Positions 25,978-50,998 of a DNA stretch of 64,000 nucleotides are shown here, one piece after another; position 1 is the stretch's first letter; each line of letters starts with the position of its first letter. Where the stretch lies: NCBI RefSeq assembly GCF_036345155.1, contig NZ_CP107772.1, positions 9,734,001-9,798,000 of the forward strand, given 5' to 3'. The stretch is from Streptomyces sp. NBC_00582. GTDB lineage: Bacteria; Actinomycetota; Actinomycetes; Streptomycetales; Streptomycetaceae. The translations under genes and the position numbers were made by a program. The notes beneath the pieces are model-generated. The model saw only the letters and a program-made list of their open reading frames with translations. It did no database searches and was not told where the DNA came from.

Positions 25978-26047
25978 GAGCCTCCGGCAGGCAGGTCGCG
26001 GCGGCGGCACGGGCGGGCCGCGACAGGAATAGGGGTGAGGGGCCGTC

Positions 26048-26461
26048 TCAGGTGCCGGAAGGCGGGGGAGGGGCCCGGCCGCGGTCGTGCGCGGATCGGT
26101 CGCGGGGGACGGGGCCGCGGGCGGGTGGCGCGGAAGGACGTACACCGGCGGCGGGCGCGGCGGTCGTACCGCGGGGGTGGGTGGCCTGCTGGTCCGGTGG
26201 CTGCGGGCGCTCACCGAGACGGTCGTGGCGGACCCCGGCCTCGGCGGTGCGTCCGGCGACGTCCGGGTCGTCCGCGCGGGGACCGCTGTCCGTCCGCTCG
26301 GCGCCCGCGGCCCCGGCCGCCACGGCCGGGTGGGGCACGCCGGCGCGGGCGCCGGCTTCCGCGACTGCGGGAACCGTCGCCAGCAGGACGGCGAGCAGCG
26401 CGCCGAGTGCCGCGGCGAGCCGGTGGCCGGAGGTCGGGACGGCGCGGGACGCCGGGCGCAT
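26048..26461 (-). CDS. Small secreted or membrane-anchored hypothetical protein
   Basis: A 137-residue protein with a clear signal peptide (HRLAAALGALLAVLLATVPA, then VAEAGA) and a mature region that is hydrophilic, disordered and rich in Pro, Arg, His and Asp. It has no recognisable domain. It is located between the response regulator gene (53 bases downstream of that gene's stop) and secDF on the same strand, so all may be in one transcript. The coding call depends on the signal peptide and position; the C-terminal half could be noise. Confidence 0.5.
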   Translation of the reverse strand: MRPASRAVPTSGHRLAAALGALLAVLLATVPAVAEAGARAGVPHPAVAAGAAGAERTDSGPRADDPDVAGRTAEAGVRHDRLGERPQPPDQQATHPRGTTAAPAAGVRPSAPPARGPVPRDRSAHDRGRAPPPPSGT

Positions 26462-26514
26462 GCACCGTCTCTTTCTCGAGGTCCGGATGCGGGGGAGGGC
26501 AGGCGGGGCAGACG

Positions 26515-27216
26515 TCAGGGTTCGATGAGCCCGGCGCGGATGGCGTAGCGGGTCAGCTCCAGCCGGTCGTGCAGGCCGAGTTTGTGCAGGAGGTTGGCCC
26601 GGTGCCGGTGCACGGTCTTGACGCTGATGAACAGGATCTCGGCGATCTCCTTCGAGGAATGACCCTCGGCGACCAGCTTGAGGACCTCCTCCTCGCGCGG
26701 TGTGAGCAGGTGATCGGCGTTCTCCTCGCCGTGCCGCACGCGTTCCAGATATGCGCGGATCAGAGCGGTGACCGCACCCGGGTAGAGGAACGGCTCGTTG
26801 CGCATCGCGGCCCGGCAGGCGGCCACCAGGTCGCGGTCGGCCACCGACTTCAGCACATAGCCGCAGGCCCCGGCCTTGAGTGCCTGGAACAGGTACTGCT
26901 CGTTGTCGTGCATGGTCAGCATCAGGATCCGCAGCCCCGGCTTGAGCGCCGCCAGTTCGCGGGTCGCCTGGAGGCCGGTCAGACGCGGCATGGCGATGTC
27001 GAGGACGGCGAGGTCGACCTCCGTCGCGCGGGCCTCGTCGATGGCCTCGGCACCGTCCCCGGCCTCGGCGACGACCCGCAGGTCGGGTTCGCGGTCGAGG
27101 ATCAGACGTACGCCGCGCCGTACGAGGGCGTGGTCGTCGGCGAGCAGGATACGGATCGGCTTCGGCGTCGACAGGGCCGCGGCCGTGCCGCGTTCGGGAG
27201 GGATGTCGTCGGACAT
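26515..27216 (-). CDS. NarL/FixJ-type response regulator
   Basis: A 233-residue regulator: receiver domain (RILLADDHALVRRGVRLILD, phosphoacceptor Asp73 in VDLAVLDIAMPRL, Lys in GYVLKSV) followed by a LuxR helix-turn-helix (LTPREEEVLKLVAEGHSSKE, ISVKTVHRHRANLLHKLGL). It lies two bases after its cognate histidine kinase. The combination with DksA/TraR-like, MreB-like and Rv1733c-like genes divergent from it recalls hypoxia/dormancy regulons controlled by DevR/OsdR-type regulators, but the target genes are inferred. ATG 27216. Confidence 0.92.
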   Translation of the reverse strand: MSDDIPPERGTAAALSTPKPIRILLADDHALVRRGVRLILDREPDLRVVAEAGDGAEAIDEARATEVDLAVLDIAMPRLTGLQATRELAALKPGLRILMLTMHDNEQYLFQALKAGACGYVLKSVADRDLVAACRAAMRNEPFLYPGAVTALIRAYLERVRHGEENADHLLTPREEEVLKLVAEGHSSKEIAEILFISVKTVHRHRANLLHKLGLHDRLELTRYAIRAGLIEP

Positions 27217-27218
27217 GG

Positions 27219-28178
27219 TCAGCGCTGCTTCCTGGGGACGGGGGTGGTCAGGCGGATCCGGGTGCCGGTGCCGGGTGTCGAGGAGATGTCCAGGGCGGCC
27301 CCGGCGAGCAGGGCCCGTTCCCGCATGCCGCGGATCCCGGCGCCCTCGCAGGCGGCCTCGATGCCGCGCCCGTCGTCGGCGACCTCCAGCACCACCGCCC
27401 CGTCGGCGCGGCGCAGGCCCACCTCCACCCGACGCGCGTCCGCGTGGCGGGCCGCGTTGGTGAGGCTCTCCTGGGCCACCCGGTACAGGACGAGTTCGCC
27501 CTCCTGGCCCAGGTCGGGCAGGTCGGTGTCCAGACGCCGCACGACACGCAGCCCGGTGTGCGTGGCGAAGTCCTGGGTGAGCGAGGTCAGCGCGCTGACC
27601 AGGCCCAGATCGTCCAGAACACCCGGCCGCAGGCGGCGCACCAGCCGCCGTACCTCGTCCAGGCTCTCCCGGGTGATCTCCTGTGCCTGCCGGAGATCTC
27701 CGCGCAGCGGCTCCGGGGCGTCGTCCGCGGCCCGTTTGAGCACCAGCAGGATCGCGGTCATGCTCTGCCCGACCTCGTCGTGCAGTTCCTGGGCGATACG
27801 GCGCCGTTCCGCCTCCTGGGCCAGCAGCGCCCGGGCGCTGGAGGTGGCGCGTTCGTGCTCCAGCCGGTCGAGCATGGCGTTGAAGGTGCGGATCAGCTCG
27901 GACACCTCGCCGCCGCCGGCGCCGGGGACGGGCAGCCGCTGACCGGGCCGCAGCAGGTCGACGGTGGTCATCAGACGGGTCAGCCGGCCCAGCGGCGCCA
28001 GGCCCCAGCGCAGCAGGGTGCCGTTGGCGACCAGCATGACGGCCAGACCGCCCACCAGGATGACCGCCTCGGTCAGCAGCACCGGCACCGAGACCGTCAC
28101 CGGCGCCCACAGCAGCAGCGCCGTGGCGGTGCCCAGCACCAGGGCGTTGAGCCCGAAGATCCGCCAGAACAGCGACAC
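27219..28178 (-). CDS. Sensor histidine kinase (HisKA_3 / NarX type)
   Basis: A 319-residue kinase beginning at GTG 28178 after AGGAGGAG. Two membrane helices (LFWRIFGLNALVLGTATALL; VLLTEAVILVGGLAVMLVAN) with almost no extracellular loop, a HAMP segment (LAPLGRLTRLMTTVDLL), then AERRRIAQELHDEVGQSMTA with the phosphoacceptor His, and an HATPase_c domain (RVAQESLTNAARHADARRVE, DDGRGIEAACEGAGIRGMRE). The lack of an external sensor suggests it senses membrane or intracellular signals. The 322 bases between this start and the divergent zinc-finger gene hold a cluster of ATGGG pentamers and no gene. Confidence 0.9.
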   Translation of the reverse strand: MSLFWRIFGLNALVLGTATALLLWAPVTVSVPVLLTEAVILVGGLAVMLVANGTLLRWGLAPLGRLTRLMTTVDLLRPGQRLPVPGAGGGEVSELIRTFNAMLDRLEHERATSSARALLAQEAERRRIAQELHDEVGQSMTAILLVLKRAADDAPEPLRGDLRQAQEITRESLDEVRRLVRRLRPGVLDDLGLVSALTSLTQDFATHTGLRVVRRLDTDLPDLGQEGELVLYRVAQESLTNAARHADARRVEVGLRRADGAVVLEVADDGRGIEAACEGAGIRGMRERALLAGAALDISSTPGTGTRIRLTTPVPRKQR

Positions 28179-28305
28179 GGGAACAGCTCCTCCTTCCGCG
28201 ACCCGTCCCGACCGGCCTTCTCGCGCTCCTCGCACGGGCGCACGCCACGGGACACGGTCGTGACCGGTCCTGCCCCCAGCCTCCGTCGCCCGGTGCCCGC
28301 CGTCG

Positions 28306-28413
28306 ATGGGGCCCAACACCCATTTCCCACACCACGCACCACCCATCCACCGCCCCGTGCGAGCGCCGTATGGGTAGCGCGGTACCGGGCGAATGGGGTC
28401 CGCGCCCGATGGG
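28306..28413. promoter_or_regulatory. Cluster of ATGGG/CCCAT pentamers in a divergent promoter region
   Basis: Six copies of ATGGG or its complement occur in 108 bases (28306, 28319, 28342, 28370, 28393, 28409), the first two forming ATGGG-N8-CCCAT. They lie between the histidine kinase and the DksA-like gene. This may be the binding site of the NarL-type regulator; nothing else supports that. Confidence 0.3.
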
Positions 28414-28500
28414 CTTTCCCCACGGCACCGAGCAGAGTCGACGGTGACCGAGGGCCTGTCGCGAACGCGGCGCCCGCCGCACCCGGAGGAAGGACCCGTC

Positions 28501-28830
28501 GTGCCGCTCGACACCCCCCAGACCGATCCCCGTCCCGGACGGCCCGCCGCCTACGAGGCACGGCAGCGCCTCGAACACGCCCGCAGCAGCCGGATGGCCC
28601 AGCTCCGGGCCCTCGACGAGGCCGGCCGGATCGTGAAGGACCAGGTGATGTCCGCCCAGGCCGAAGCGATCCAGCGGGTCCTCAAGGAGATCGACGAGGC
28701 GTTCGCCCGCGTCGACGACAGCTCCTACGGCACCTGCCAGGGCTGCGCGAAGCCGGTCCCCGCCGAACGTCTGGAGATCCTCCCCTACACCCGGTACTGC
28801 GTCGCCTGCCAGCGCCGCGCCGCCGCCTGA
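28501..28830 (+). CDS. TraR/DksA-type zinc-finger protein
   Basis: A 109-residue protein starting at GTG 28501 after GGAGGAAGGA. A long coiled-coil (RLEHARSSRMAQLRALDEAG, then SAQAEAIQRVLKEIDEAFAR) is followed by the C4 zinc finger YGTCQGCAKPVPAERLEILP and TRYCVACQRR. DksA/TraR proteins enter the RNA polymerase secondary channel and alter initiation, often with ppGpp. Actinobacterial members lack the classic DxxDxA tip, and none is visible here, so binding to polymerase is likely but the effect is unknown. First gene of a three- or four-gene run. Confidence 0.85.
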   Translation: MPLDTPQTDPRPGRPAAYEARQRLEHARSSRMAQLRALDEAGRIVKDQVMSAQAEAIQRVLKEIDEAFARVDDSSYGTCQGCAKPVPAERLEILPYTRYCVACQRRAAA

Positions 28831-32030: not shown

Positions 32031-32134
32031 GCCCGCCATTCTGCCCGGCCGTGTCCCCGAGGCCCGCCCGAGCATGCGTCGCAGGCCGATGCGGTGTGAC
32101 GTGAGCTGTCGGGGCGTCATGTGAGGATGTGCCC

Positions 32135-33265
32135 ATGAGGTGGCTGGAGAGACCTGGGCGGCGCGCGGTCGGGCTCGTGATGGCGGCGCTGGCGCTGACC
32201 TCCTGCGGTAGAGGCGGCTCCGACGACGGGGCGTCAGGGAGCCGCGAGGCCACGTACAAGCAGGTCGTCGAAGACCCTCACCCGCGTCCCGCCGATGTGA
32301 TCGAGGCGGCCGGCGCACCCTACGGCGTGGCCCGTGCGGGCGACGGCTCGCTGCTGCTGACGTACGAGGCCGACAACGTCGAGGACGACGAGGGTCCGGC
32401 CGCCGCGGCCTGGCGGATCGTCGGCCCGGACGGCCGTACGGTCGCCGAGCACGCGGAACACACGAACGCGGAGGACACACGGGCCGTGTTCAAGGGGGCG
32501 CCGAAGGGCTTCGTGCGGGTGCCGTCGGGGGAGGGGGCCGAGGGGGCGTACACCCTCGACCTGCGCGGCAGGCGCCACCAGGTCGTCGTCGACGAGACCC
32601 CGTTGGGCTCGCGCGCCGGCGACATCCTGCTGGGCGAGTGGGAGCCGGTCCTCGTCCACCGCCCCGCGACCCGCACCGTGGCGCCCCTGAGCGGGGTGCC
32701 CGACGGTGCCGCCCGCCTCGCCCTCGACGAGCGCGGCACGGTCTGGAGTCTGGACCAGTCCCTGACGGAGGAGAGCGCCGACCGCGTGGTGTGGCAGCGC
32801 GACGGCCGCACCCTGGGCACCAAGGCCGTCCCCGAGCCGTACACGGGAGGCGTCCTCGCCGCGCGGGGCGGCACCGTGGCGCTGTCCCTCACCCAGGGGG
32901 ACAAAGAGCGCGGCCTGCTGGTGACGGCGGACGACGGCGGGCACCGGAGGACCGTCCTCGACGGCGGCATCCCGTGGAAGGACCTCGAGGGCGGCCCCGA
33001 CGCGCTCGTACTGGAGCCGCTCGAGGACGGGCGGCTGCTCGTCGGCGAGGCGGGCGGCCGGTACTGGCTCGCCGACGACCCCACCAACAACGCCTTCCAC
33101 CAGCTGGAGACACCGGCGACCCTGACCTCGCTCACCGTCCACGGCACCACGCTCTACGGCATCACGGACGCGACGACACCGTCGTACGACCTGGTGAAGG
33201 ACGAGGGGCTGTGGATCTCCCGCGACGGCGGCCGCGCGTGGCGGGCGTACACACCTTCGCCCTGA
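32135..33265 (+). CDS. Lipoprotein with beta-propeller-like repeats
   Basis: A 376-residue protein with a lipoprotein signal (RRAVGLVMAALALTSCGRGG). The body is beta-rich with sialidase/YVTN-like repeats: RLALDERGTVWSLDQSLTEE, SLTQGDKERGLLVTADDGG and, at the end, DEGLWISRDGGRAWRAYTP, whose SRDGGRAW is an Asp-box. It is probably an extracytoplasmic propeller; ligand unknown. ATG 32135 preferred over GTG 32129, six bases earlier. It is alone, just upstream of the FAAL operon but separated by a 264-base region with its own promoter. Confidence 0.7.
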   Translation: MRWLERPGRRAVGLVMAALALTSCGRGGSDDGASGSREATYKQVVEDPHPRPADVIEAAGAPYGVARAGDGSLLLTYEADNVEDDEGPAAAAWRIVGPDGRTVAEHAEHTNAEDTRAVFKGAPKGFVRVPSGEGAEGAYTLDLRGRRHQVVVDETPLGSRAGDILLGEWEPVLVHRPATRTVAPLSGVPDGAARLALDERGTVWSLDQSLTEESADRVVWQRDGRTLGTKAVPEPYTGGVLAARGGTVALSLTQGDKERGLLVTADDGGHRRTVLDGGIPWKDLEGGPDALVLEPLEDGRLLVGEAGGRYWLADDPTNNAFHQLETPATLTSLTVHGTTLYGITDATTPSYDLVKDEGLWISRDGGRAWRAYTPSP

Positions 33266-33529
33266 CTCCTCCGCCCCGCGGCGGGTGCTCACGGTGTCTG
33301 CCGGAACGGAACTCGCCGTCCTGGCCGCTCGATCGTGCCGTGACGGGGGGTGCGCGGACGTGACCTGCCCCGACGTCTCCCCGGCTGATCCGCTCCACAA
33401 CGGCCCTGTAGTCAAGCGGAAGTTGAAGAAGATACAGTGTCGGCCTCGCACACGACCGGATCACCGGACTCACGAGTTCAGCCTGAGTAGCGGGAGCGCC
33501 CCGACCCGGCGGCTCTGGGAAGGGGTTCG
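33266..33529 (+). promoter_or_regulatory. Promoter region of the FAAL-desaturase operon
   Basis: TAGTCA (33409-33414) and TACAGT (33433-33438) are separated by 18 bases, a fair housekeeping-type promoter that would start transcription near 33445. The flanking sequence (AAGTTGAAGAAGATACAG) is unusually AT-rich for this genome. GGGAAGGGG lies just before the GTG at 33530. No coding signal was found in the 264 bases. Confidence 0.4.
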
Positions 33530-35341
33530 GTGGGACAAGGGGCGGTGACCCGCGAGCGGGAACGACCGGATGCGACGCTCATCGAGGTCCTCGACCGCCG
33601 GGCACGGTCGACGCCTCACCGAACGGCGTTCCGCTTCCTCGCCGACGGGACGAGCGACCACATCGAGTCGTGGACCTACGGCGAACTGAAGCGGTACTCC
33701 GACGCCCTCGCGGCGAGGTTGAGATCCGCGGGGCACGGCGGTGACCGCGTGGTGGTGGCCGGCCGGCCCGGACTGCGGTTCGTGGCGGGGCTCATGGGTG
33801 TACTCCGGGCCGGAGCGACGGTCGTACCGGCCTTTCCGCCGACGAACCGGCGCGCCGTGACCCGACTGCGTTCGATCCTGGCCGACTGCGCGCCCGGCGC
33901 GATCCTGGCCGACTCCCGCCATGAGCGGCGGTTCGCCGGGACGGCGGCCGCGGGGGAGCCGTTACCGCGGCTGATCCCGCTGGACGACGAACCCCGCGGG
34001 ACGCCGGGCGACGCACAGGTCCCGACGGCGCCGGACGATCCGGCGCCGCCGACGGACATCGCGCTGATCCAGTACTCGTCCGGCTCGACGGGCGACCCGA
34101 AGGGCGTGGAACTGACCCACGCCCACCTGATGAGCAACTGCCACGCCATCGGCCGGCACATCGGCGCCGAGGACGACCGCGTCGGGCTGACCTGGTTGCC
34201 GCCGTACCACGACATGGGGCTCATCGGCACCATCATGCTGGCGCTGCACGGCGGTTGGCCGCTGCTGATGATGACACCGGAGCACTTCGTCCAGCAGCCG
34301 GCGCGCTGGCTCCGGGCGATCGGCGACTACCGGGTCACCATCACCGTCGCGCCGAACTTCGCCTTCCAGCTCTGCGCGGACACCGTCGAGGAGGAGGACC
34401 TCGCCGGTGTGGACCTGTCGTCGCTCCGGCACGTCTTCTGCGGCTCCGAGCCGATCGCCCTCGACACCCTCCGCGCCTTCCGGAAGCGGTTCGAGCCCCT
34501 GGGCTACCGGGAGAGGACACTGATCCCCTGCTACGGGCTCGCCGAGGCCACCCTGCTCGTGACGGCCAAGGCACCCGGGGCCGCCCTCAGCGTCGAATGG
34601 GCGGACCGGGAGGAGCTCTCGCAGGGCAGGGTGGCGCTCTCGCGCGGCGCGGCCGACACGCCGAACGGCACCGTCCCCCTCGTCGGGTGCGGTGGACCGG
34701 CTGAGGGCCACGAACTGCTGGTCGTCGATCCCGACTCCGGCCGTGTCCTGGGCGACGGCGAGATCGGGGAGATCTGGGTGCACGGGCCCGGCGTCGCCAC
34801 CGGTTACCACCGTCGACCCGGACCGACCGCCGCGGTGTTCGGCGCGACGCCCGCCGGCCGTGCCGCTCCGCGGGACGGTGAGCGGAAGACGTATCTGCGG
34901 ACCGGTGACCTCGGCTATCTGCGCGACGGCGACCTGTTCGTGACCGGCCGGATCAGCGGTCTGCTCGTGGTGGCCGGCCGCAACCTCTACCCCCAGGACA
35001 TCGAGCGCACCGTCGACCGCGCCGACCCGTCCGTGCACCGGTCGGTCGCCTTCGCCGTGCCCGGCACACCCGAGGAACACGTCATGGTGGTCGCCGAGGT
35101 GCGCGACAGCCGCCGGACCCGACCCCAACTCGACGCCCTGCGCGGCAGACTGCTGGCCGCGGTGGCCGCCGACCACGGCGTCCGGCCGAGCGCGGTGCAC
35201 CTCGTGCGGGTCGGCTCCATTCCCCTGACCACCAGCGGCAAGATCCGCCGAGGAGCAGCCCGGACGGCGTACCTGGAGCACTCCCTGGCCGGCGCCCTCG
35301 TACCCTCCGATGGATCCGGGGACGAGGGAGCCGTGTCATGA
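33530..35341 (+). CDS. Fatty acyl-AMP ligase (FAAL) of a polyyne-like cluster
   Basis: A 603-residue adenylate-forming enzyme. Seen are the P-loop-like A3 motif LIQYSSGSTGDPKGVELTH, the HHxxG-type WLPPYHDMGLIGTIM, PCYGLAEATLLVTAKAPG, the A7/A8 hinge YLRTGDLGYLRDGDLFVTGR, and the lysine in LTTSGKIRRGAAR. The PPYHDMGLIG segment and the FAAL insertion before YLRTGDLG point to an acyl-AMP ligase instead of an acyl-CoA ligase. It would activate a medium or long fatty acid with ATP and load it onto the carrier protein encoded three genes downstream. Start GTG 33530; another GTG at 33545. Its stop overlaps the next ATG by four bases. Confidence 0.9.
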   Translation: MGQGAVTRERERPDATLIEVLDRRARSTPHRTAFRFLADGTSDHIESWTYGELKRYSDALAARLRSAGHGGDRVVVAGRPGLRFVAGLMGVLRAGATVVPAFPPTNRRAVTRLRSILADCAPGAILADSRHERRFAGTAAAGEPLPRLIPLDDEPRGTPGDAQVPTAPDDPAPPTDIALIQYSSGSTGDPKGVELTHAHLMSNCHAIGRHIGAEDDRVGLTWLPPYHDMGLIGTIMLALHGGWPLLMMTPEHFVQQPARWLRAIGDYRVTITVAPNFAFQLCADTVEEEDLAGVDLSSLRHVFCGSEPIALDTLRAFRKRFEPLGYRERTLIPCYGLAEATLLVTAKAPGAALSVEWADREELSQGRVALSRGAADTPNGTVPLVGCGGPAEGHELLVVDPDSGRVLGDGEIGEIWVHGPGVATGYHRRPGPTAAVFGATPAGRAAPRDGERKTYLRTGDLGYLRDGDLFVTGRISGLLVVAGRNLYPQDIERTVDRADPSVHRSVAFAVPGTPEEHVMVVAEVRDSRRTRPQLDALRGRLLAAVAADHGVRPSAVHLVRVGSIPLTTSGKIRRGAARTAYLEHSLAGALVPSDGSGDEGAVS

Positions 35342-36282
35342 GACCTGAAGCCCAAGCCGGGCCACCGGCCGATGCGCACCGCGCCCCGCCCACGGACCGC
35401 CTCGCCCTCGCGCTCGCCTGCGCCACCGTCGGCGGGTCCACGGCCGGTTTCGTGGCCGCGATCGTCTTCACCGTCCACCACGGCTGGTCGTGGCTGCACT
35501 TCGCGCTGTTCACCGGCATGTACCTCGTCACCTCCCTGGGCGTCGAGGGAGGGCTGCACCGGTTCTTCTCGCACCGCTCGTTCTCCGCCGGTCCGGTGCT
35601 GACATTCCTGTGGGGTGTCGCGGGCAGCATGGCGGCACAGGGGCCGATCCTGTTCTGGGTGTCGGTGCACCGCAAGCACCACGCCTTCGCCGACCGGGAC
35701 GGCGATCCCCACTCGCCGCGCCCTCGGGGCGAGGGCCGGCTGGCGGTCGTGCGCGGTCTGTGGCACGGCCATGTCGGCTGGCTGTTCACGGTCCGGCGCG
35801 AAGGCTGGGCCAAGTTCGTTCCCGACCTGCTCCGCAACCGCCACGTCCACACCATCGACCGCTACTACATCGGGTGGATCTCCCTCGGCCTGGCCCTGCC
35901 GGCCGCGGTGGGCTGGGCGATCACCGGCCGGCCGGTGGACGCGCTCGGCGGACTGCTGTGGGGCGGGTTCGCCCGGATGTTCGTCCTCGACCATGTGACC
36001 TGGACGGTCAACTCGCTGGGACACACGCTGGGCCACCGCCCGTACGACACCCGTGACTCCAGCCAGAACCTCGCCGTGCTCGCGCCGGTCTCCGTGGGCG
36101 GGTCCTGGCACAACAACCACCACTCGCAGCCGTCGCTGGCGCACAACCGGCACCGCTTCTGGCAGCTCGACCTCACCGGCGGGGTCATCGGCCTCCTGGA
36201 CCGGGCGGGACTGGTGTCGGACGTCCGCTACCCGCCGCGCGCGAAATGGGCTCAGGCAGTCCGGACAAGAGAAGGAGAGTGA
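35338..36282 (+). CDS. Membrane fatty acid desaturase (delta-9/acyl-CoA desaturase type), first copy
   Basis: A 314-residue integral membrane di-iron enzyme. All histidine boxes are present: GLHRFFSHRS (HxxxxH), VSVHRKHHAFADRDGDPHSP (HxxHH plus the conserved DPHSP) and GGSWHNNHHSQPS (HxxHH). Four hydrophobic helices flank them. In this setting it would insert a double bond, or convert one to an alkyne, in the acyl chain held by the cluster's carrier protein. It overlaps the FAAL gene by four bases and ends three bases before the second desaturase. Its sequence is clearly paralogous to that protein. Confidence 0.92.
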   Translation: MRPEAQAGPPADAHRAPPTDRLALALACATVGGSTAGFVAAIVFTVHHGWSWLHFALFTGMYLVTSLGVEGGLHRFFSHRSFSAGPVLTFLWGVAGSMAAQGPILFWVSVHRKHHAFADRDGDPHSPRPRGEGRLAVVRGLWHGHVGWLFTVRREGWAKFVPDLLRNRHVHTIDRYYIGWISLGLALPAAVGWAITGRPVDALGGLLWGGFARMFVLDHVTWTVNSLGHTLGHRPYDTRDSSQNLAVLAPVSVGGSWHNNHHSQPSLAHNRHRFWQLDLTGGVIGLLDRAGLVSDVRYPPRAKWAQAVRTREGE

Positions 36283-36285
36283 ACC

Positions 36286-37230
36286 ATGGCGGCTGTCGGC
36301 GCCCCGGCGGGCATCGTCCGGCTCGACCCCAGAAGCCTGCGGGTCAAGAGATTCTCGGCACTGACCACCATGGTCCTTCCGCTCATCGGCACCGTCGCCG
36401 CCGGATACCTCCTGGTCACCGGGCGAGGCACGACGACCGACGCGGTGCTGTTCGGGGTGTTCTACGGCGTGCACCTCGGCGGAGTCACCGTCGGGCTGCA
36501 CCGGTACCTCGCCCACCGGGCGTTCAAGACCTCGCCCTGGTTCCAGGACGTCCTGATGGCCGCCGGGTCGATGGCCGCACAGGGCCCGCTGCTGTTCTGG
36601 GTGGCGACCCACCGCAGACACCACAAGTACGCCGACCGCGAAGGCGATCCGCACTCGCCCCACCTGCACGGCACGGAGTGGCGGGCCCGGCTGCGCGGCC
36701 TGTGGTACGCGCACATGCCGTGGATGCTGAGCGAGGAGTCGTCGAAGTGGTCCGTCTACGCGCCGGACGTGCTGCGTGAGCGGCGCCTGGTCCTGCACCA
36801 CCGCCTCTACCCGACCTGGGTGCTGGCGGGGCTCGTCCTCCCGGCCGCGATCGGTTTCGCCGTCGGGCACACGGCCCTGTCCGCCTTCTCCGGCCTCGTC
36901 TTCGGCGGCCTCGCCCGGATCTTCGTCGCCAACCAGGCCGCGTGGTGCGTCGGTTCGCTCTGCCACGCCTTCGGCAGCAGGCCGTTCGACAACGGCGACA
37001 AGAGCACCAACAACTGGTGGGTCGCCGTCCTCACCTTCGGCGAGGGACTGCAGAACAACCACCACGCCTTTCCCGGGTCCTACCGCCACGCCGTCCGGTG
37101 GTGGGAGCCCGACCTCAGCGGCTGGGTGCTGACCGTCCTCGGCCGGCTGCACCTCGTGTGGGATCTGCACGAGCCCTCGGCCGCACGTATCGCCCGGAAA
37201 CGACAGGAGTCCCAGCGTGTTTCGCCGTGA
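36286..37230 (+). CDS. Membrane fatty acid desaturase, second copy with altered third histidine box
   Basis: A 314-residue paralogue of the preceding protein, of equal length. Box one is GLHRYLAHRAFK and box two ATHRRHHKYADREGDPHSPH, both complete. Box three reads GEGLQNNHHAFPGSYRHA: the first His of HxxHH is Gln here, while the preceding enzyme has WHNNHH. Changes near the metal centre are of the kind that might separate acetylenases from desaturases, but this is inference. The next gene's GTG overlaps its end by 14 bases, supporting a tight operon. An overlapping GAAGGAGAG serves as the RBS. Confidence 0.9.
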   Translation: MAAVGAPAGIVRLDPRSLRVKRFSALTTMVLPLIGTVAAGYLLVTGRGTTTDAVLFGVFYGVHLGGVTVGLHRYLAHRAFKTSPWFQDVLMAAGSMAAQGPLLFWVATHRRHHKYADREGDPHSPHLHGTEWRARLRGLWYAHMPWMLSEESSKWSVYAPDVLRERRLVLHHRLYPTWVLAGLVLPAAIGFAVGHTALSAFSGLVFGGLARIFVANQAAWCVGSLCHAFGSRPFDNGDKSTNNWWVAVLTFGEGLQNNHHAFPGSYRHAVRWWEPDLSGWVLTVLGRLHLVWDLHEPSAARIARKRQESQRVSP

Positions 37231-37513
37231 CAAGAACGAACGCACCCCCGACGGCCCGGTCACCGAGGACGCCATCCGCGCGTGGATGGTCGACTACCTG
37301 GTGAACAGGCTGTCCGTCGAACCCGCCGCGGTCGACACGAGCCGGTCCTTCGAGGACTACGGGCTCGACTCCCGCGCCGGCATACAGATGTGCGGAAAGC
37401 TCGAGAAGTTCGTCGAACTCCGCCTGTCGCCCGCCCTGTTGTACGAGCACTCCTCCATCGACGCCGTGGCCGCCCATCTCGGCCGGCGGCTCGTCGAGGA
37501 GAGCAGCCACTGA
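37217..37513 (+). CDS. Acyl carrier protein
   Basis: A 98-residue carrier protein with helix I (EDAIRAWMVDYLVNRLSVEP) and the phosphopantetheine site FEDYGLDSRAGIQMCGKLE, where Ser52 of DSR is modified. Helix III contains ALLYEHSSIDAVAAHLGRRL. The DSR instead of DSL site and the stand-alone context are typical of carrier proteins that serve FAALs, not fatty-acid synthase. It would carry the acyl chain while the three desaturases act on it. GTG 37217 lies inside the end of the preceding gene. Confidence 0.92.
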   Translation: MFRRDKNERTPDGPVTEDAIRAWMVDYLVNRLSVEPAAVDTSRSFEDYGLDSRAGIQMCGKLEKFVELRLSPALLYEHSSIDAVAAHLGRRLVEESSH

Positions 37514-37526
37514 GAGCGAGGACATC

Positions 37527-38627
37527 ATGGCCCTGAGCTCCACACCCACCAGCCCGGACCGGCGGTTCGAGGAGTTCCTGGACAAGTCGCGGGCGCTGGA
37601 GGGGCGGCACCTGACGGAGTCGATCCCGCGCGAGTACTTCACCCCGCGCACGGCCCGCGGGCTGCTCGGGCTCGCCGTGAGCCTCGCCCTCTACACGGGG
37701 GCGATCACCGGAGTCGTGTTCTCCCCCTCCTGGCTGCTGGACATCCCGCTGTGGTTCGTGGCCGGCCTCGGCGGCTGGGGCCTGCACTGCATCGCGCACG
37801 ACTGCGGCCACGGCTCCTTCTCCCGTTCACGACGTCTCAACACCGCCGTGGGCAGCTTCGCCCTGCTCCCGCTCGTGTACCCGTACCACTCCTGGCGGCA
37901 CGTGCACAATCTGCATCACTCGTACACCAACAACCTCGAACTCGACACCGACTGGCGGCCCCTGCCCCCGGACGCCTACCAGCGCCTTTCCCCCGTCGCC
38001 AAGGCCGTCTACGCCGGCACCCGCACCTGGGCCTTCTGGGGAGGCACCGTCCGGTACTGGTTCGTGTCGGGCTTCCGCCCCGGCTACTTCCCCAAGCGGT
38101 CGATGCGCCGCGAGGTGTGGCGGTCCATCGCCTTCACCGCGCCCGTCGCCGTCGCCGGTCTGTCGGCGCTCACGGTGTTCACCGGCGTACGGGGCCTGCT
38201 GTCCTACTTCGTCCTGCCGTGGCTGATGATCCACCTGTGGTTCAGCGCCACCACCCTCATGCACCACAGCGCCGCCGACGTCCCCTTCCTGACCTCGCAG
38301 CACTGGACACGCAACGCCGCCCGGCTGCTGCTCACCACGGACTACGCGTACCCGAGGGTGCTGTCGTTCCTCACCCACAACATCTCCGTGCACACCGCGC
38401 ACCACGTGGCCCCGGCGATCCCGTTCTACAACCTCCCCCAAGCGCAACTGGCCTTGAAGGAAGCGCATCCGGGCATGGTCAGGGAGGAGCGGCTGGGGTT
38501 CGGCCGGCTGTGGCGGATCCTGCGCGGCCTTCACCTGTACGACACGGAAGCGGGCTTCTACACCGACTTCCGGGCGGCGAAGGAACCGCCGGGAAGCCGG
38601 CCCGAGCAACTGTCCCGCCCTGCGTGA
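37527..38627 (+). CDS. Membrane fatty acid desaturase (delta-12/FADS type), third copy
   Basis: A 366-residue membrane enzyme from a different branch than the two upstream ones. Boxes: HCIAHDCGHGSFSRS (HDCGH), SWRHVHNLHHSYTNN (HNLHH) and SVHTAHHVAPAIPFYN (HTAHH). Hydrophobic helix pairs lie between them. Delta-12-type members of this branch include acetylenases, so this is a good candidate for the triple-bond-forming enzyme. Thirteen bases separate it from the carrier-protein gene, and the P450 starts 32 bases after its stop. Confidence 0.92.
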   Translation: MALSSTPTSPDRRFEEFLDKSRALEGRHLTESIPREYFTPRTARGLLGLAVSLALYTGAITGVVFSPSWLLDIPLWFVAGLGGWGLHCIAHDCGHGSFSRSRRLNTAVGSFALLPLVYPYHSWRHVHNLHHSYTNNLELDTDWRPLPPDAYQRLSPVAKAVYAGTRTWAFWGGTVRYWFVSGFRPGYFPKRSMRREVWRSIAFTAPVAVAGLSALTVFTGVRGLLSYFVLPWLMIHLWFSATTLMHHSAADVPFLTSQHWTRNAARLLLTTDYAYPRVLSFLTHNISVHTAHHVAPAIPFYNLPQAQLALKEAHPGMVREERLGFGRLWRILRGLHLYDTEAGFYTDFRAAKEPPGSRPEQLSRPA

Positions 38628-38659
38628 CCGCGACGGAGCGACTCGACGGAGGCAACGTC

Positions 38660-39901
38660 ATGCCAGCGACCGACCACCGGCCGACCGAGCCGGCCATGGG
38701 GCCGGCCGAGGCCCTCTCGGAGCTGTTCACCCCGGCCGGAAAACACCACCCCTACTCCCTGTACGACGCACTGTGGCACCTGGGACCGGTGATCCCCCTC
38801 GGCCCCTCGGGAACCCTCGTCCTCGGCTACGACGAGATCTGCACCGCCCTGCGCGACTCCCGCCTCCTGGTCACCGACGCCACCGTGCACCGGACGACCG
38901 GCATGATCGAGCACTCCTCGTGGCAGTGCTTCACCAAGATCATGATGTTCAGCAACCCGCCCGACCACGAGCGCATGCGCCGGTTCTCCGCCTGGGCCTA
39001 CGCGCCCCGCCAGGTCGCCGAGCGGCGGCACCTGGCGGTCCGGGCGGCCGAGCACTGGGCGGCCCGGCTCGCCACCCTCGACGACGGCGGCCCGATCGAC
39101 CTGGTCGAGGCGTTCGCCACCCGCGTCCCCGTCACCGTCACCGGAGAGCTCCTCGGAATCCCCGAGGAGGACCGGATGGCGCTGCGCACCGCCATCACCG
39201 CGACCACGACCGCGTTCGAGCCCGTCTTCGACCGCGAGGAACTGCGGCCCGCCGACGCGGGAATGGACGTCCTGGTCGACTACCTCGACGACCTCGTACG
39301 GGAACGCCGGCGCCGGCCGGGCGACGACCTGATCAGTACGATGGTCCGGGACCGGGACACCGGCGGGGAGCTGAGCGAGGAGGAACTCGTCGCCAGTCTG
39401 GTGATGTTCCTCATCGCCGGCGTGCAGAGCCCCAGCGACCTGATCGGCAGCACCGTACGGCTCGCCCTCGACCACCCCGCCGAGGGCCGCAGACTGACGA
39501 GCGACGACGACCACATCCGGGCCTTCGTGACCGAGACCCTGCGGTTCGACCCCCCGAACCATGTGCTGACACGCGCCGCCGCCACGGACATCGACTTCCA
39601 CGGCCACCGCATCGCCGCAGGCACCAGAGCCCTGCTCGTCCTGGCCGCCGCCAACCGCGACCCCCGCCAGTTCACCGACCCGGCCGCCTTCGACCTCACC
39701 CGGACGGACAACCGGCCGCTCTCCTTCGGGCTGGGCCCGCACTACTGCCTGGGCGCCGCCTTCGCCCGAACGCAGGTCGAAGCCGCCGTACCCGTCCTGC
39801 TGCGCCGCTTCCCCCATCTGACCCTCACCGCCCCACCCGCCTACCGGGACCAACTGGTCACCCGCGGCTTCGCCCACATGGAGGTGTCGCTCGGCGCCTA
39901 G
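38660..39901 (+). CDS. Cytochrome P450 of the polyyne-like cluster
   Basis: A 413-residue bacterial class I P450. The start is ATG 38660 after GACGGAGG. Landmarks: FSNPPDHERMRRFSAWAYAP, the I-helix SLVMFLIAGVQSPSDLIGST (Ser where the oxygen-activating Thr is usual), ETLRFDPPNHVLTR (ExxR), and the heme loop SFGLGPHYCLGAAFA with Cys363 as ligand. It would hydroxylate, epoxidise or desaturate the carrier-bound or free acid, as the P450 of the caryoynencin cluster does. No ferredoxin or reductase gene is nearby, so host partners would be used. Confidence 0.92.
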   Translation: MPATDHRPTEPAMGPAEALSELFTPAGKHHPYSLYDALWHLGPVIPLGPSGTLVLGYDEICTALRDSRLLVTDATVHRTTGMIEHSSWQCFTKIMMFSNPPDHERMRRFSAWAYAPRQVAERRHLAVRAAEHWAARLATLDDGGPIDLVEAFATRVPVTVTGELLGIPEEDRMALRTAITATTTAFEPVFDREELRPADAGMDVLVDYLDDLVRERRRRPGDDLISTMVRDRDTGGELSEEELVASLVMFLIAGVQSPSDLIGSTVRLALDHPAEGRRLTSDDDHIRAFVTETLRFDPPNHVLTRAAATDIDFHGHRIAAGTRALLVLAAANRDPRQFTDPAAFDLTRTDNRPLSFGLGPHYCLGAAFARTQVEAAVPVLLRRFPHLTLTAPPAYRDQLVTRGFAHMEVSLGA

Positions 39902-39947
39902 GCTGTGGGCGCGGGATCAACCAGGCCCAGCGGGACGGGAGGTCGCA

Positions 39948-40951
39948 GTGACGGCAGGTGCGGTGCGAAGGACGGTGGCCGTTTTCACCCTCGGTGGCAC
40001 CATCACCATGACCACCGACCCGGCGACCGGAGGGGTCGTACCGGCCCTCTCCGCGCACGACCTGCTGGCCGCCGTCCCCGGCCTGGACGCCCACCCCATC
40101 GATCTGCGGCTGCGGGAGGTCCGTCGGGTACCCAGTGCGTCGCTGGACTTCGACGATCTCACCGCACTCGCCGGGGCGATCGACCGGACCCTCGCCGCCG
40201 GGGCGTCGACGGTGTGGTGGTGGTGCAGGGCACGGACACGATCGAGGAGAGCGCGTTCCTCCTCGACCTCCACCACCGTCATGACGAGCCGCTCGTGGTG
40301 ACGGGCGCGATGCGCAACCCCACCCTGGCGGGTCCTGACGGGCCGGCCAATCTGTACGGGGCGGTCGTCGCCGCGGCGGACCCGCGGGTGCGCGGGGGCG
40401 GGGTGCTGGTCGTCCTGAACGACGAGATCCACGCGGCACGCCGGGTCCGCAAGTCCCACACCACCAGCCCCGCCGCCTTCACCTCGCCCGGCACCGGACC
40501 CGTGGGCCTGATCGCGGAGGGCCGTGTCCTGCTGACGTCCCCGCTTCCCCCGCGCACGGACCCCCTGGCGCCGGCGGCCCGTGACGTCCGCGTGGGCCTG
40601 TACACCGTCAGCCTCGGTGACGACGGCACGCTGCTGGAGGCGTGGGACGGCCGGTGCGACGGGCTGGTGGTCGCCGCCTTCGGCGGGGGACACGTCCCCG
40701 AGCGGCTCGTCGAGGGTCTCGGGCGGCTCGCCGGGCGCATCCCCGTCGTCCTCGCCTCACGCATCGACAACGGCCCCGTCCTGACCGCGACTTACGGCTA
40801 CCCCGGCTCGGAGCGGGACCTGATCGGCCGGGGCCTCGTCCCGGCCGGCGACCTCGGCCCGTACCGGGCACGCCTGTTGCTCCGGACGCTGCTCGCCCAC
40901 GACGCGGACCTCGAGACGATCACCGCGAGGTTCTCCGCGTTCATCCGCTGA
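39948..40951 (+). pseudogene. Asparaginase, frameshifted
   Basis: The frame from 39948 (AVFTLGGTITMTTDPATGG, the first catalytic Thr motif) is lost near 40203, where LAAGAS should continue as GVDGVVVVQGTDTIEESAFL (second Thr motif). The rest of the protein is intact in the other frame: VVTGAMRNPTLAGPDGPANL, YGAVVAAADPRVRGGGVLVV, PVVLASRIDNGPVLTATYG and a normal end at 40951. One missing G in the GGGG at 40198-40201 would explain it, giving about 334 residues. Either a recent loss or a sequencing error. It starts 46 bases after the P450 and could be read from the same transcript. Confidence 0.85.
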
Positions 40952-41744
40952 CGGGAGCGCCTCGGCCACCGCGGTCTTCCCGCGGCCGCCCCATGGCCTG
41001 GTCCAGATGCGTGATGACGGCCGGCACGTCGTCGTTCTCGGTGCTCCGGATCAGCTGCAGAGCCGGCCGCACCACGCCGCCCGGCCGCGCGATCAGCCGC
41101 GCGAGTACGGCGGCCCGGACGTCGAGCCGCTCGACGGTGGCCGTGCGTTCCTTCTCGCTCTGGCCGGCCAGCAGGAGGGCGTTGTACCACGCCTCCTCGC
41201 GGGACTGGCGGACACTGAAGTCGAGGATCCGCTCATCGGTACGGGCTCCGATCCTGTCCAGCACCGACAGGAGTGGTGACAGACCGTCGACCGAGTCCTG
41301 CACCGCGAGCACCACCCGCGCGAGGATGTCGTTGATCAGCAGAAAGTCGTGCCGCAAGGTGTGGATGGCCTCGCCCGGGCCGGTCCGTGCGGCGGCGATG
41401 GCCAGGTCGAGGTTGATGTGCGCGTTCACGCCGAGCAGCAGGTGCTGGACGATGACGGTGTCGGCGTCGTCGAGCAGTCCGAACGCCTCCCGCCAGCAGC
41501 GCGGCCCGCTCCGGTCACGGCGCCAGGCGTCGTACGCGTCGAAGTAGCGGTTGCCGAAGTGGGTGTCGAAACGGTCCATGCGGGCGCCGTCCTCGAAGAG
41601 CCCGCCGTGGATGGCCGTACGGACCTCCACCGTCACCTGTCGGTACAGCGCCGCGAAGTACCCGACCCGGTCACCGTCGCGGGCGGCCTCCCGCACGATC
41701 CCGGCCAGCCCGTCCACGACATCGTCGATGTTCTCCGCCGTCAT
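40941..41744 (-). CDS. DUF5995 family protein
   Basis: A 267-residue all-helical protein with GGAG six bases before ATG 41744. Conserved blocks are YFAALYRQVTVEVRTAIHGG, RMDRFDTHFGNRYFDAYDAW, IVQHLLLGVNAHINLDLAIA and HDFLLINDILARVVLAVQDS. The His and Asp residues in NAHINLDL and HDFLLIND could hold a metal. Function unknown. It converges with and overlaps the asparaginase by 11 bases. It lies upstream and divergent to the TetR gene, with the operator region in between. Confidence 0.8.
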   Translation of the reverse strand: MTAENIDDVVDGLAGIVREAARDGDRVGYFAALYRQVTVEVRTAIHGGLFEDGARMDRFDTHFGNRYFDAYDAWRRDRSGPRCWREAFGLLDDADTVIVQHLLLGVNAHINLDLAIAAARTGPGEAIHTLRHDFLLINDILARVVLAVQDSVDGLSPLLSVLDRIGARTDERILDFSVRQSREEAWYNALLLAGQSEKERTATVERLDVRAAVLARLIARPGGVVRPALQLIRSTENDDVPAVITHLDQAMGRPREDRGGRGAPVSG

Positions 41745-41880
41745 GCCCAACTCCCCTCCCGCGCGCCCTGGTTGGGCCCGCCCGCTGCCTGCCGTCCACC
41801 GTGCCGATGACAGCCCCCGTCCTACCACCGCACACCGGGAAGCGTCCCCGCCCTACGGGAAATGGGACGGGGCCGACTGT

Positions 41881-48237: not shown

Positions 48238-48483
48238 CCACCCTCTGAGGGCTCTCCGCCTCCTCTCCTTCTCCGCATGAGCCGGGAGCCCGTCCGCGCA
48301 CGCCGACACGGTCGCTGAGAACGCGGCCGCAGCGGTCGCGCGACCACGCGCTCGCTTCTCCGGCCTCGCCAACCCGCGTTCCCCGTGCGGTCGTTCACGC
48401 CTGCGCGGCACCAGCCCATTCACCCCGACTCCCCGATCCCCAGCACCCTTCGGTGCGCCCGTCCGTCCGGGAGGGACCCCCTC

Positions 48484-49380
48484 ATGCCTCCGTCCATCCG
48501 TAAGCTCACCGGCCGCATCGGCGCGGTCGTCGAGGGCGTCGACCTCACGGCACCGCCCGACCCCTCGACGGTCACGGCGCTCCGGGACGCCCTCAACGAG
48601 CACAAGGCGATCGTCTTCGACGACGTGCGGCTCGACAACGCCGGCCAGGAGCGCGTGGCCGGCTGGTTCGGCGAGCCGACGACCGCTCATCCGAATGTGC
48701 CCGCCGTCGACGGCACGACGAACGTACTCGCCGTCGACAGCGACACCTCCAAGGCCAACGAGTGGCACACGGACGTCACGTTCGTGGTCAACCCGCCGCA
48801 GCTCACCACGCTCCGGTCCATCGTGACGACGCCCTACGGCGGTGAGACGCTCGTCGCCAACGCCGCCGCGGCCTACCGTGACCTGCCCGAACCGCTGCGC
48901 GCCCTCGCGGACACCCTGCGCGTCGTGCACACCAACCAGTACGACTACGCGCGCCCCGAGGCCACCTCCGCCGCACGGGCGGAGTACGACCGCGTCTTCG
49001 TCTCGACGCCCTACGAGGCCGAGCACCCGGTCGTACGGGTGCACCCCCTGACGGGTGAACGCGGGCTGTTCATCGGCGGGTTCGCTCACCGCGTCGTCGG
49101 CCTGTCGGGCAGCGAGTCGGCGGATCTGCTGCGCATCCTGCAGTCGTACGTGACCCGCCCCGAGAACATCCTGCGCTGGACCTGGTCCCCGAACCAGTTG
49201 CTGATCTTCGACAACCGGATCACCCAGCACTACGGGGTGGACAACTACGACGACCACCCGCGCCGCCTGAACCGGGTGACGATCGCCGGAGAGGTGCCGG
49301 TGGGCGTCGACGGACGCCGCAGCGAGCAACTTCTCGGCGACGCCTCGCACTACACGAGTGTGCTGGAGGCTGCGGCATGA
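48484..49380 (+). CDS. TauD/TfdA-type 2-oxoglutarate dioxygenase (alkylsulfonate or sulfate ester)
   Basis: A 298-residue Fe(II)/2OG dioxygenase: TGRIGAVVEGVDLTAPPDPS, HKAIVFDDVRLDNAGQERVA, the iron ligands in NEWHTDVTFVVNPPQLTTL (His-x-Asp) and ITQHYGVDNYDDHPRRLNRV (distal His and cosubstrate Arg). TauD-type enzymes hydroxylate taurine, alkylsulfonates or sulfate esters so that sulfite or sulfate is released. It is the first gene after the cysteine leader and overlaps the permease gene, so sulfur scavenging is the likely role. Exact substrate unknown. Confidence 0.9.
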   Translation: MPPSIRKLTGRIGAVVEGVDLTAPPDPSTVTALRDALNEHKAIVFDDVRLDNAGQERVAGWFGEPTTAHPNVPAVDGTTNVLAVDSDTSKANEWHTDVTFVVNPPQLTTLRSIVTTPYGGETLVANAAAAYRDLPEPLRALADTLRVVHTNQYDYARPEATSAARAEYDRVFVSTPYEAEHPVVRVHPLTGERGLFIGGFAHRVVGLSGSESADLLRILQSYVTRPENILRWTWSPNQLLIFDNRITQHYGVDNYDDHPRRLNRVTIAGEVPVGVDGRRSEQLLGDASHYTSVLEAAA

Positions 49381-50270: not shown

Positions 50271-50998
50271 GCAGCGCAGTCACGACCGAGCCCCGTCGGC
50301 AGACCGGCGTCGTCGTGGAGCAGGTGGTCCGCCGGTTCGGCGAGCGGGCGGTGCTCGACCACCTCGATCTCACCATCGCCGACGAGGAGTTGGTGATCCT
50401 GCTCGGCCCCTCCGGCTGCGGCAAGAGCACCCTCCTGCGCCTCCTCGCCGGACTGGACCGGCCCGACGCGGGACGCGTGGAGGTCCCGGCCCGACGGGCG
50501 ATCGTCTTCCAGGCCGACCGTCTGCTGCCGTGGCAGCGCGTCCTGCGCAACGTCACGCTCGGGCTGCACGGGGCCGACGCGGAACAGCGCGCCCGCGACG
50601 TGCTCGCCGAGGTCGGACTCTCGGGCCGCGAGAAGGCATGGCCCAAGGAACTCTCCGGTGGCGAGGCCCAGCGGGTGTCCCTCGCCCGGGCCCTGGTCTC
50701 GGAGCCCGAACTCGTGCTCCTGGACGAGCCGTTCGCGGCCCTCGACGCGATCACCCGACTGCGTATGCACGACCTCGTACGGGCGCTGCGGACCAAGCAC
50801 CACGCCGCCATGCTGCTCGTCACCCACGACGTCGACGAGGCGATCGCCCTGGCCGACCGCGTCGTCGTCATGAGCAACGGCCGCATCGGCGCCTCGCACG
50901 ACGTCCGCCTCTCCGCCGCCGACCGTGAAGCGAGCGTCGCCCGCGAGGAACTCCGCGCCCGGCTCCTGGAAGACCTCGGCCTCGCAGGCCAGCACTGA
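50267..50998 (+). CDS. Sulfonate-type ABC transporter ATP-binding protein (SsuB-like)
   Basis: A 243-residue single-domain ABC ATPase: Walker A LLGPSGCGKSTLLRLLAGLD, Q-loop VFQADRLLPWQRVLRNV, signature LSGGEAQRVSLARALVSEPE, Walker B LVLLDEPFAALDAITRLRMH and switch His in LLVTHDVDEAIALADR. The LLPW segment after the Q-loop is characteristic of the nitrate/sulfonate/taurine subfamily. It drives the SsuC-like permease; overlap of four bases with that gene. Confidence 0.92.
   Translation: MSSAVTTEPRRQTGVVVEQVVRRFGERAVLDHLDLTIADEELVILLGPSGCGKSTLLRLLAGLDRPDAGRVEVPARRAIVFQADRLLPWQRVLRNVTLGLHGADAEQRARDVLAEVGLSGREKAWPKELSGGEAQRVSLARALVSEPELVLLDEPFAALDAITRLRMHDLVRALRTKHHAAMLLVTHDVDEAIALADRVVVMSNGRIGASHDVRLSAADREASVAREELRARLLEDLGLAGQH

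What the first reader, a model, noticed from the sequence alone, without database searches (positions are those of the whole stretch)
33530..39901. Polyyne-type (acetylenic fatty acid) biosynthetic operon in a Streptomyces-like genome
Seen: an uninterrupted run FAAL, desaturase, desaturase, ACP, desaturase, P450 with overlaps or gaps of at most 32 bases. Known: polyyne clusters such as that for caryoynencin in Burkholderia are built on a FAAL, two desaturases, an ACP and a third desaturase, followed by a thioesterase and P450; the order here is the same, without the thioesterase. JamABC/TtuABC terminal-alkyne loci use only one desaturase. Inferred: the operon makes a conjugated polyyne or related poly-unsaturated acid, a class little described from actinomycetes and unstable on isolation.
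Basis: partly seen in the sequence, partly recalled or inferred. Interest (0 to 1): 0.88.

Follow-up and report, generated by a model that had tools for sequence, protein, structure and literature searches.

The report
Pared-down polyyne operon in a Streptomyces
A soil-type bacterium carries a compact six-gene set that most likely builds a fatty acid with several carbon-carbon triple bonds; it belongs to an already noted but uncharacterised subgroup that lacks the usual enzyme for cutting the product loose and the usual electron carrier.

Summary
FAAL, desaturase, desaturase, ACP, desaturase and P450 run uninterrupted at 33530-39901 (+), with overlaps or gaps of at most 32 bases. The architecture is not new: Mullins et al. 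2021 (PMC8406139, passages read) reported 10 actinobacterial genomes in one polyyne subclade whose thioesterase and rubredoxin genes are 'replaced' by a P450.

I found seven compact operons, the window's included (one lacks a desaturase); they form one clade. Three points go beyond the passages read. (1) The P450 is no replacement: 23 actinobacterial clusters that keep thioesterase and rubredoxin carry a related P450. (2) Rubredoxin was found nowhere in six of seven compact genomes, and no close thioesterase relative in any of the seven. (3) The P450 stands out in having a changed active site: 19 of 108 testable conserved positions switched, against 22 of 606 in the other five proteins, including Glu to Gln and Ala to Ser in the I-helix.

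Most likely it makes a conjugated acetylenic acyl-ACP that the P450 oxidises. Release and electron supply are unknown.

The parts
33530..35341 (+). Fatty acyl-AMP ligase (FAAL), 603 aa, first gene of the operon; one TTA codon
   Evidence: Pfam AMP-binding 1.8e-74; NCBIfam best matches are an NRPS/PKS model and FAAL/FadD models, all below their cut-offs; in the polyyne FAAL clade, SH-aLRT 100, apart from 19 other FAALs; TTA at codon index 144
35338..36282 (+). Desaturase 1 (CayB/CayC-like di-iron membrane desaturase), 314 aa
   Evidence: Pfam FA_desaturase; 90-92% identical to three Streptomyces orthologues, 52-67% to other polyyne actinomycetes; His74, 79, 111, 114, 115, 258, 261, 262 invariant in 45 rows
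36286..37230 (+). Desaturase 2 (CayB/CayC-like), 314 aa
   Evidence: Pfam FA_desaturase; 87-92% to the three Streptomyces orthologues; His72, 77, 109, 112, 113, 259, 260 invariant in 46 rows
37217..37513 (+). Acyl carrier protein, 98 aa; phosphopantetheine serine Ser52 in GLDSR
   Evidence: Pfam PP-binding 2e-11; D51 and S52 invariant in 47 rows
37527..38627 (+). Desaturase 3 (CayE/PgnH/JamB-like acetylenase candidate), 366 aa
   Evidence: Pfam FA_desaturase 8.3e-38; des3 tree; His87, 91, 95, 125, 127, 130, 131, 289, 292, 293 invariant in 47 rows
38660..39901 (+). Cytochrome P450, 413 aa; heme Cys363, ExxR Glu292-Arg295
   Evidence: Pfam p450 5.7e-23; Cys363, Glu292 and Arg295 invariant in 21 rows; model mean pLDDT 83.4 but under 50 at 357-363 by the heme cysteine; nearest solved structures P450BioI and CYP164A2, tied
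39425..39430 (+). I-helix codons for Gln256-Ser257, in place of the Glu-Ala seen in the P450s of full actinobacterial polyyne clusters
   Evidence: Gln-Ser in 7 of 7 compact rows, Glu-Ala in 23 of 23 others; codons CAG AGC

Best explanation
A reduced, still functional polyyne operon of the P450-only actinobacterial subclade. Steps and their standing: (1) the FAAL activates a fatty acid as its adenylate and loads it on the operon's ACP at Ser52 (inferred from family, clade and intact residues). (2) Three di-iron membrane desaturases dehydrogenate the ACP-bound chain stepwise to a conjugated acetylenic or ene-yne chain (inferred by orthology to pathways where the desaturases were shown to be essential). 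(3) Their electrons come from some carrier other than rubredoxin, because none was found in the genome (absence by search; substitute unknown). (4) The P450 oxidises the acetylenic chain, perhaps while it is still on the ACP, with an active site changed from that of its relatives (sequence change shown; chemistry inferred). (5) Release happens without the cognate thioesterase (absence by search; route unknown: an unlinked hydrolase, transfer to another enzyme, or the P450 itself). I put 0.72 on the product being a polyyne or conjugated ene-yne fatty acid derivative.
For: The FAAL and des3 lie in the polyyne clade. All three desaturases are present with complete histidine boxes. Of the genes called around six other compact loci, only the operon genes recur in all of them. 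Whole-gene dN/dS is 0.13-0.50 for all six genes against three Streptomyces. Published deletions of pgnE, pgnF and pgnH (desaturase-thioesterase didomain) and of cayB, cayC and cayE abolished the polyynes (PMC8406139, passages). The compact rows are one clade in the des3 tree (7 rows, 100/99), the P450 tree (7 rows, 100) and the FAAL tree (6 rows, 99). The P450 switch is concentrated at ligand-contact positions of P450BioI: 8 of 18 switched against 8 of 84 kept, Fisher p 0.001.
Against: No product is known and none was measured. Deletion of cayF (thioesterase) abolished caryoynencin, and absence of the rubredoxin MasJ significantly decreased polyynes in E. coli (PMC8406139; PMC9098870); both genes are missing here. 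Nocardia colli, in the same clade, lacks des1 altogether, so the clade tolerates a smaller desaturase set. Amycolatopsis pithecellobii, also in the clade, has an in-frame stop in its FAAL, cut by a contig start, so that copy may be dead or misassembled. No exporter or resistance gene was recognised beside the window's operon.
Confidence: 0.72

Rival explanations
1. The operon makes a terminal alkyne or conjugated polyene acyl-ACP with fewer unsaturations, used as a starter by an unlinked PKS/NRPS or acyltransferase; that would explain the missing thioesterase.
For: No thioesterase relative at the locus or in the genome at E <= 0.001; JamABC-type cassettes hand acyl-ACP to a synthase (recalled). 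Nocardia colli keeps only two of the three desaturases. The window genome has six further FAAL matches at E <= 1e-50, so unlinked lipid pathways exist.
Against: I saw no PKS or NRPS among the window's translations read (not every one was scanned), and no neighbour is shared by all compact loci. Three desaturases in polyyne order are more than one alkyne needs; FAAL and des3 sit in the polyyne clade.
Confidence: 0.15
2. A decaying remnant: with thioesterase, rubredoxin and exporter lost, the pathway no longer makes its product.
For: The lost genes matter in characterised pathways (PMC8406139; PMC9098870). One clade member has an interrupted FAAL and one lacks des1.
Against: Whole-gene dN/dS 0.13-0.50 in 18 comparisons, intact catalytic residues, tight packing kept in seven genomes, and 19 lineage-fixed changes in the P450 look like re-purposing, not decay.
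Confidence: 0.07
3. Ordinary lipid desaturation: the enzymes adjust membrane or storage lipids.
For: Pfam sees only generic desaturases, and NCBIfam matches lie below their cut-offs.
Against: The genome has a separate desaturase at C1:6341573-6342439, 36-39% identical, which could serve the membrane. The set is rare: des2 matches at E <= 1e-90 in 7 of 391 genomes of the order, own included.
Confidence: 0.06

Closest known systems
P450-only actinobacterial subclade of the polyyne clade (Mullins et al. 2021, PMC8406139; passages read)
   Same: Thioesterase and rubredoxin genes absent and a P450 present; Streptomyces and Amycolatopsis among the hosts; inside the polyyne clade.
   Different: The passages read do not name the 10 genomes, so identity with my loci could not be checked. 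Here the P450 proves related to one already present in full clusters, so it looks retained, not substituted.
Caryoynencin (cay) and protegencin (pgn) clusters
   Different: Those have a thioesterase (fused to the desaturase in PgnH); rubredoxin is in all four BGCs compared in that paper, caryoynencin's included. This operon has neither. CayG, the caryoynencin P450 (name recalled), was not fetched, so its relation to this P450 is untested.
Full actinobacterial polyyne clusters, e.g. Streptomyces goshikiensis plasmid NZ_CP108058.1 (L021)
   Same: Same five-gene core at 48-66% identity and a related P450 at 43%.
   Different: It adds an alpha/beta hydrolase (TE), rubredoxin, MFS exporter and an upstream thioesterase-family gene; P450s of 23 such clusters have Glu-Ala where this has Gln-Ser.
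JamABC/TtuABC terminal-alkyne cassettes
   Same: FAAL, JamB-like desaturase and ACP.
   Different: JamABC sequences were not fetched.
P450BioI (CYP107H1), which cleaves ACP-bound fatty acids (PMC10741444, passages)
   Same: Top by sequence profile and Foldseek, about 30% identity; here too an ACP is encoded in the same operon.

Membership tests
Canonical bacterial polyyne cluster (FAAL, 2 desaturases, ACP, desaturase, thioesterase, rubredoxin) | FAAL of the polyyne clade | tested here: met
   32 polyyne rows incl. window in one clade, SH-aLRT 100, against 19 other FAALs
Canonical bacterial polyyne cluster (FAAL, 2 desaturases, ACP, desaturase, thioesterase, rubredoxin) | Three desaturases with intact histidine boxes, and an ACP between the second and third | tested here: met
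Canonical bacterial polyyne cluster (FAAL, 2 desaturases, ACP, desaturase, thioesterase, rubredoxin) | Thioesterase at the locus | tested here: not met
   No match at the window locus; none in the genome at E <= 0.001
Canonical bacterial polyyne cluster (FAAL, 2 desaturases, ACP, desaturase, thioesterase, rubredoxin) | Rubredoxin at the locus | tested here: not met
   None at the locus, none found in the genome
P450-only subclade of the polyyne clade (Mullins 2021) | Polyyne core with a P450 and without co-located thioesterase and rubredoxin | tested here: met
P450-only subclade of the polyyne clade (Mullins 2021) | One subclade inside the polyyne clade | tested here: met
   7 compact rows 100/99 in the des3 tree of 53 rows; placement among actinobacterial clusters only 86-91
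P450-only subclade of the polyyne clade (Mullins 2021) | Falls with the 10 genomes of the paper | not testable with these tools
JamABC terminal-alkyne cassette | A single desaturase with FAAL and ACP | tested here: not met
   Three desaturases
P450BioI-type acyl-ACP cleaving P450 | Nearest solved relative, with ACP-bound acyl substrate | tested here: inconclusive
   BioI and CYP164A2 tie; substrate not testable

The most novel reading that the evidence does not exclude
The P450 has taken over product release. Working on the ACP-bound acetylenic chain as P450BioI does on fatty acyl-ACP, it cleaves a carbon-carbon bond of the chain and so frees the acetylenic end as an aldehyde or acid, making the thioesterase dispensable. 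The Glu to Gln and Ala to Ser switch in its I-helix, with the other pocket changes fixed in all seven compact operons, would mark this change of chemistry.
Probability: 0.1. Interest if true: 0.75.

Novelty: new member of a known kind. Interest (0 to 1): 0.45.

Why it matters
Polyynes are potent, unstable antimicrobials. PMC8406139 (2021, passages) says no actinobacterial polyyne had been tied to a gene cluster, and my literature searches listed no title or abstract start that reports one. This six-gene operon is small enough to clone whole, and it poses a clean question: how does a polyyne pathway run without the thioesterase and rubredoxin that matter elsewhere? The natural contrasts are ready-made: seven compact against 23 full-cluster actinobacterial P450s, and a Nocardia version with only two of the three desaturases.

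Tried and rejected
AsnB-type amidotransferase as the release enzyme (product amide): an AsnB gene adjoins the operon in L040 (same strand, 48 bp after the P450), L041 and L082 (opposite strand). But L040's AsnB groups with two S. roseoverticillatus copies (75% and 66% identical) on other contigs than its polyyne cluster, the three cluster-side copies do not form one group, and the window genome has no match at E <= 1e-60. Kept only as a weak lead.

Asparaginase downstream as a cluster gene: not found among the genes called beside the other compact loci, and split by a frameshift.

P450 as a newly recruited replacement for TE and rubredoxin: rejected, because 23 full actinobacterial clusters carry a related P450 at 43-50% identity to the window's.

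P450BioI as the single nearest relative: rejected as a firm claim, because CYP164A2 ties with it.

Sigma-70 promoter scan: 0 sites in 33150-40100, one terminator-like site against 1.2 expected; uninformative for Streptomyces. The first P450 Pfam and NCBIfam scans used a wrong frame (38632) and found nothing; repeated in frame for Pfam only.

Rows dropped before counts: the des3 tree left out eight duplicates (L021, L022, L023, L032, L034, L035, L036, L060) and ten of 13 cyanobacterial loci (L087-L096). The FAAL tree left out the same eight duplicates, L041 (cut by the contig start) and 11 near-duplicates; its 19 outside FAALs are those of the 30 loci that were neither cluster copies (9), a fragment nor a second identical copy, out of 56 matches. 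The invariance count also left out L042 and L061. The like-for-like count used 22 comparison clusters (L042 left out), of which 21 had usable rows for des1, des2 and FAAL; L068 was left out for des1, because its match was its des2. Two of 30 dN/dS comparisons (FAAL and des3 of L041) were not computed because of a stop in the matched stretch.
Full report
WHAT IS THERE. The window is bases 9,734,001-9,798,000 of a 10.8 Mb contig in an 11.1 Mb Streptomyces-like genome. The six genes lie at 33530-39901 on the + strand with junctions of -4, +3, -14, +13 and +32 bases. Pfam gives AMP-binding, three FA_desaturase, PP-binding and, in the right frame, p450. The P450 start is taken as ATG 38660, not the mechanical ORF start 37751. 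Flanking genes are a protein without a Pfam match, lipoprotein-like by eye (32129-33265), a frameshifted asparaginase (about 39948-40951), DUF5995 and a TetR regulator. None of these is shared by all compact loci.

RELATIVES. A genome-contig scan with a des3 profile returned 60 loci: 47 with des3 at 50% identity or more, and 13 cyanobacterial ones at 33-34% with no other match above my thresholds. Of the 47, six are compact like the window: Streptomyces griseoruber L038, S. coacervatus L039, Streptomyces sp. yr375 L040, Amycolatopsis pithecellobii L041, Kibdelosporangium banguiense L082 and Nocardia colli L068. The other 41 all show a thioesterase match next to des3, and 35 also a rubredoxin match; the six without are L061 (contig end), L075, L076, L083, L077 and L078. 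N. colli lacks des1 at the locus, and its genome's only match to des1 is its own des2 at 43%. L041 starts inside the FAAL, so its upstream side is unseen, and that FAAL has one in-frame stop. In samples, close des2 matches (E <= 1e-90) occur in 7 of 391 genomes of the order, and close des3 matches (E <= 1e-100) in 2 of 394 of the class, own included in both.

TREES. In the des3 tree (53 rows) the seven compact rows are one clade, 100/99. Their place among actinobacterial full clusters has support of 86-91 only. In the FAAL tree (51 rows, quick method) the 32 polyyne rows, six compact ones included, separate from 19 other FAALs with SH-aLRT 100. In the P450 tree (30 rows, quick method) the seven compact rows face 23 others, 100. 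Since clusters with thioesterase surround the compact clade in the rooted des3 tree, loss of thioesterase and rubredoxin is the simpler reading.

WHAT WAS LOST. Rubredoxin (PF00301) was not found in the window genome nor in 6 of 7 compact genomes; the exception is N. colli, with two on another contig than the operon. At least one was found in 16 of 16 other genomes tested, one of which (M. hubeiense, L075) has its two on another contig than its cluster. For the L021 thioesterase, seven compact genomes give nothing (three) or weak matches (four; best E 1.5e-5, the longest spanning 56-257 of 284 residues at 27%), against 59-100% identical full-length matches in 3 of 3 full-cluster genomes. Generic alpha/beta hydrolases exist (e.g. 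L068:2613-3416), so an unlinked hydrolase is not excluded. The MFS exporter and upstream thioesterase-family gene, common beside full Streptomyces clusters, have no match at the compact loci; S. griseoruber has another MFS gene about 4 kb upstream (L038:1782-3065). Six of the seven genomes may be incomplete drafts; the window's is rated 100% complete.

WHAT CHANGED. Count positions conserved in at least 90% of the same 21-22 actinobacterial full clusters and invariant in the compact rows. The P450 has switched at 19 of 108, FAAL at 4 of 153, des1 4 of 129, des2 6 of 136, des3 7 of 158 and ACP 1 of 30. P450 against the rest is 19 of 108 to 22 of 606, Fisher p 8e-7. FAAL and ACP are nearly as divergent between the groups (mean identity 0.53 and 0.51 against 0.47), so overall divergence alone does not explain it, though related rows make the p-value optimistic. 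Two switched sites are the I-helix pair: Glu-Ala in 23 of 23, Gln-Ser in 7 of 7, residues 256-257 here. Mapped on P450BioI with the ligand contacts listed in PMC10741444 (passages), 8 of 18 switched positions are contacts, against 8 of 84 kept ones, p 0.001; one switched site has no BioI counterpart and one contact (S56) could not be mapped. Neither Q256 nor its BioI counterpart Glu237 is on that contact list; S257 (Thr238) is. The desaturases, by contrast, keep the histidines of their boxes.

REGULATION. All four Streptomyces compact operons have one TTA codon in the FAAL match, at codon indices 144, 37, 217 and 214; S. griseoruber has one in des3 as well. Full Streptomyces clusters have one in the FAAL in 2 of 19, and 1 of 31 other window ORFs of 200 aa or more does. 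That suggests control by the leucyl-tRNA gene bldA (recalled); the sample is small and the three non-Streptomyces FAALs have none.

MECHANISM. Loading by FAAL, stepwise dehydrogenation on the ACP and oxidation by the P450 follow from orthology. The essential role of the desaturases and of cayF is from passages of PMC8406139. The significant loss of polyynes without the rubredoxin MasJ in E. coli, and the common core FAAL, two desaturases, ACP, desaturase, hydrolase/thioesterase, rubredoxin over 56 clusters, are from passages of PMC9098870. Electron supply and release are open.

KNOWN OR NEW. PMC8406139 states that 10 actinobacterial genomes (Streptomyces, Micromonospora, Amycolatopsis) in one subclade appear to have thioesterase and rubredoxin replaced by a P450, and that no actinobacterial polyyne had been linked to a cluster to date. 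antiSMASH 8 has a polyyne rule (PMC12230676, one passage). Nine searches on this theme listed no paper whose title or abstract start reports a product of such a cluster; only openly licensed PMC papers were searched, and of those listed I read passages of five (PMC8406139, PMC9098870, PMC10741444, PMC12560086, PMC12230676). The finding is a new member of a noted, uncharacterised kind. The genome-wide losses and the P450 switch are my additions relative to the passages read.

LIMITS. The large protein database was off, so relatives come from one scan of one genome per species and from sampled genomes. CayG, JamABC and the ten published genomes were not compared directly. No expression or product data exist here.

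Noticed in passing
window 39948-40951 (+): Type II asparaginase-like gene right after the P450, split by a frameshift near 40200: its N-terminal half reads in the frame of 39948, its C-terminal half in the frame of 39905. Natural or an assembly error, not decided.
   Followed up: partly
L068:7140-12276: Nocardia colli carries a compact operon without des1 (FAAL, des2, ACP, des3, P450), a natural version with two of the three desaturases.
   Followed up: yes
L041:2-1390: The FAAL of the Amycolatopsis pithecellobii compact operon, cut by the contig start, has one in-frame stop.
   Followed up: partly
L040:12410-14263; L041:5783-7612; L082:12351-14180: An AsnB-type amidotransferase gene adjoins three compact operons, although the three copies do not form one group.
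   Followed up: yes
window 33530-35341; L038, L039, L040: One TTA codon in the FAAL of all four Streptomyces compact operons, against 2 of 19 in full Streptomyces clusters.
   Followed up: partly
L059 and L060: Streptomyces griseofuscus DSM 40191 has a full polyyne cluster near both ends of its chromosome record, on opposite strands, as if in the terminal repeats.
   Followed up: no
L075, L076, L083: Mycobacterium hubeiense, an uncultured Mycolicibacterium and an actinomycete MAG have a polyyne core with thioesterase but no rubredoxin match at the locus, followed by a second FAAL.
   Followed up: no
window 23689-28514 and 40941-41828; L038:12394-19907: S. griseoruber has relatives (83-86%) of the window's SecDF-like and sensor-kinase-like genes (names by eye) and DUF5995 gene near its compact operon too, in a different arrangement, which points to local rearrangement.
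   Followed up: no
window 48385-54266 (+): From reading the translations only: TauD-like dioxygenase, ABC permease, ATPase and substrate-binding protein, and a flavin monooxygenase, resembling a sulfonate or sulfur uptake operon.
   Followed up: no
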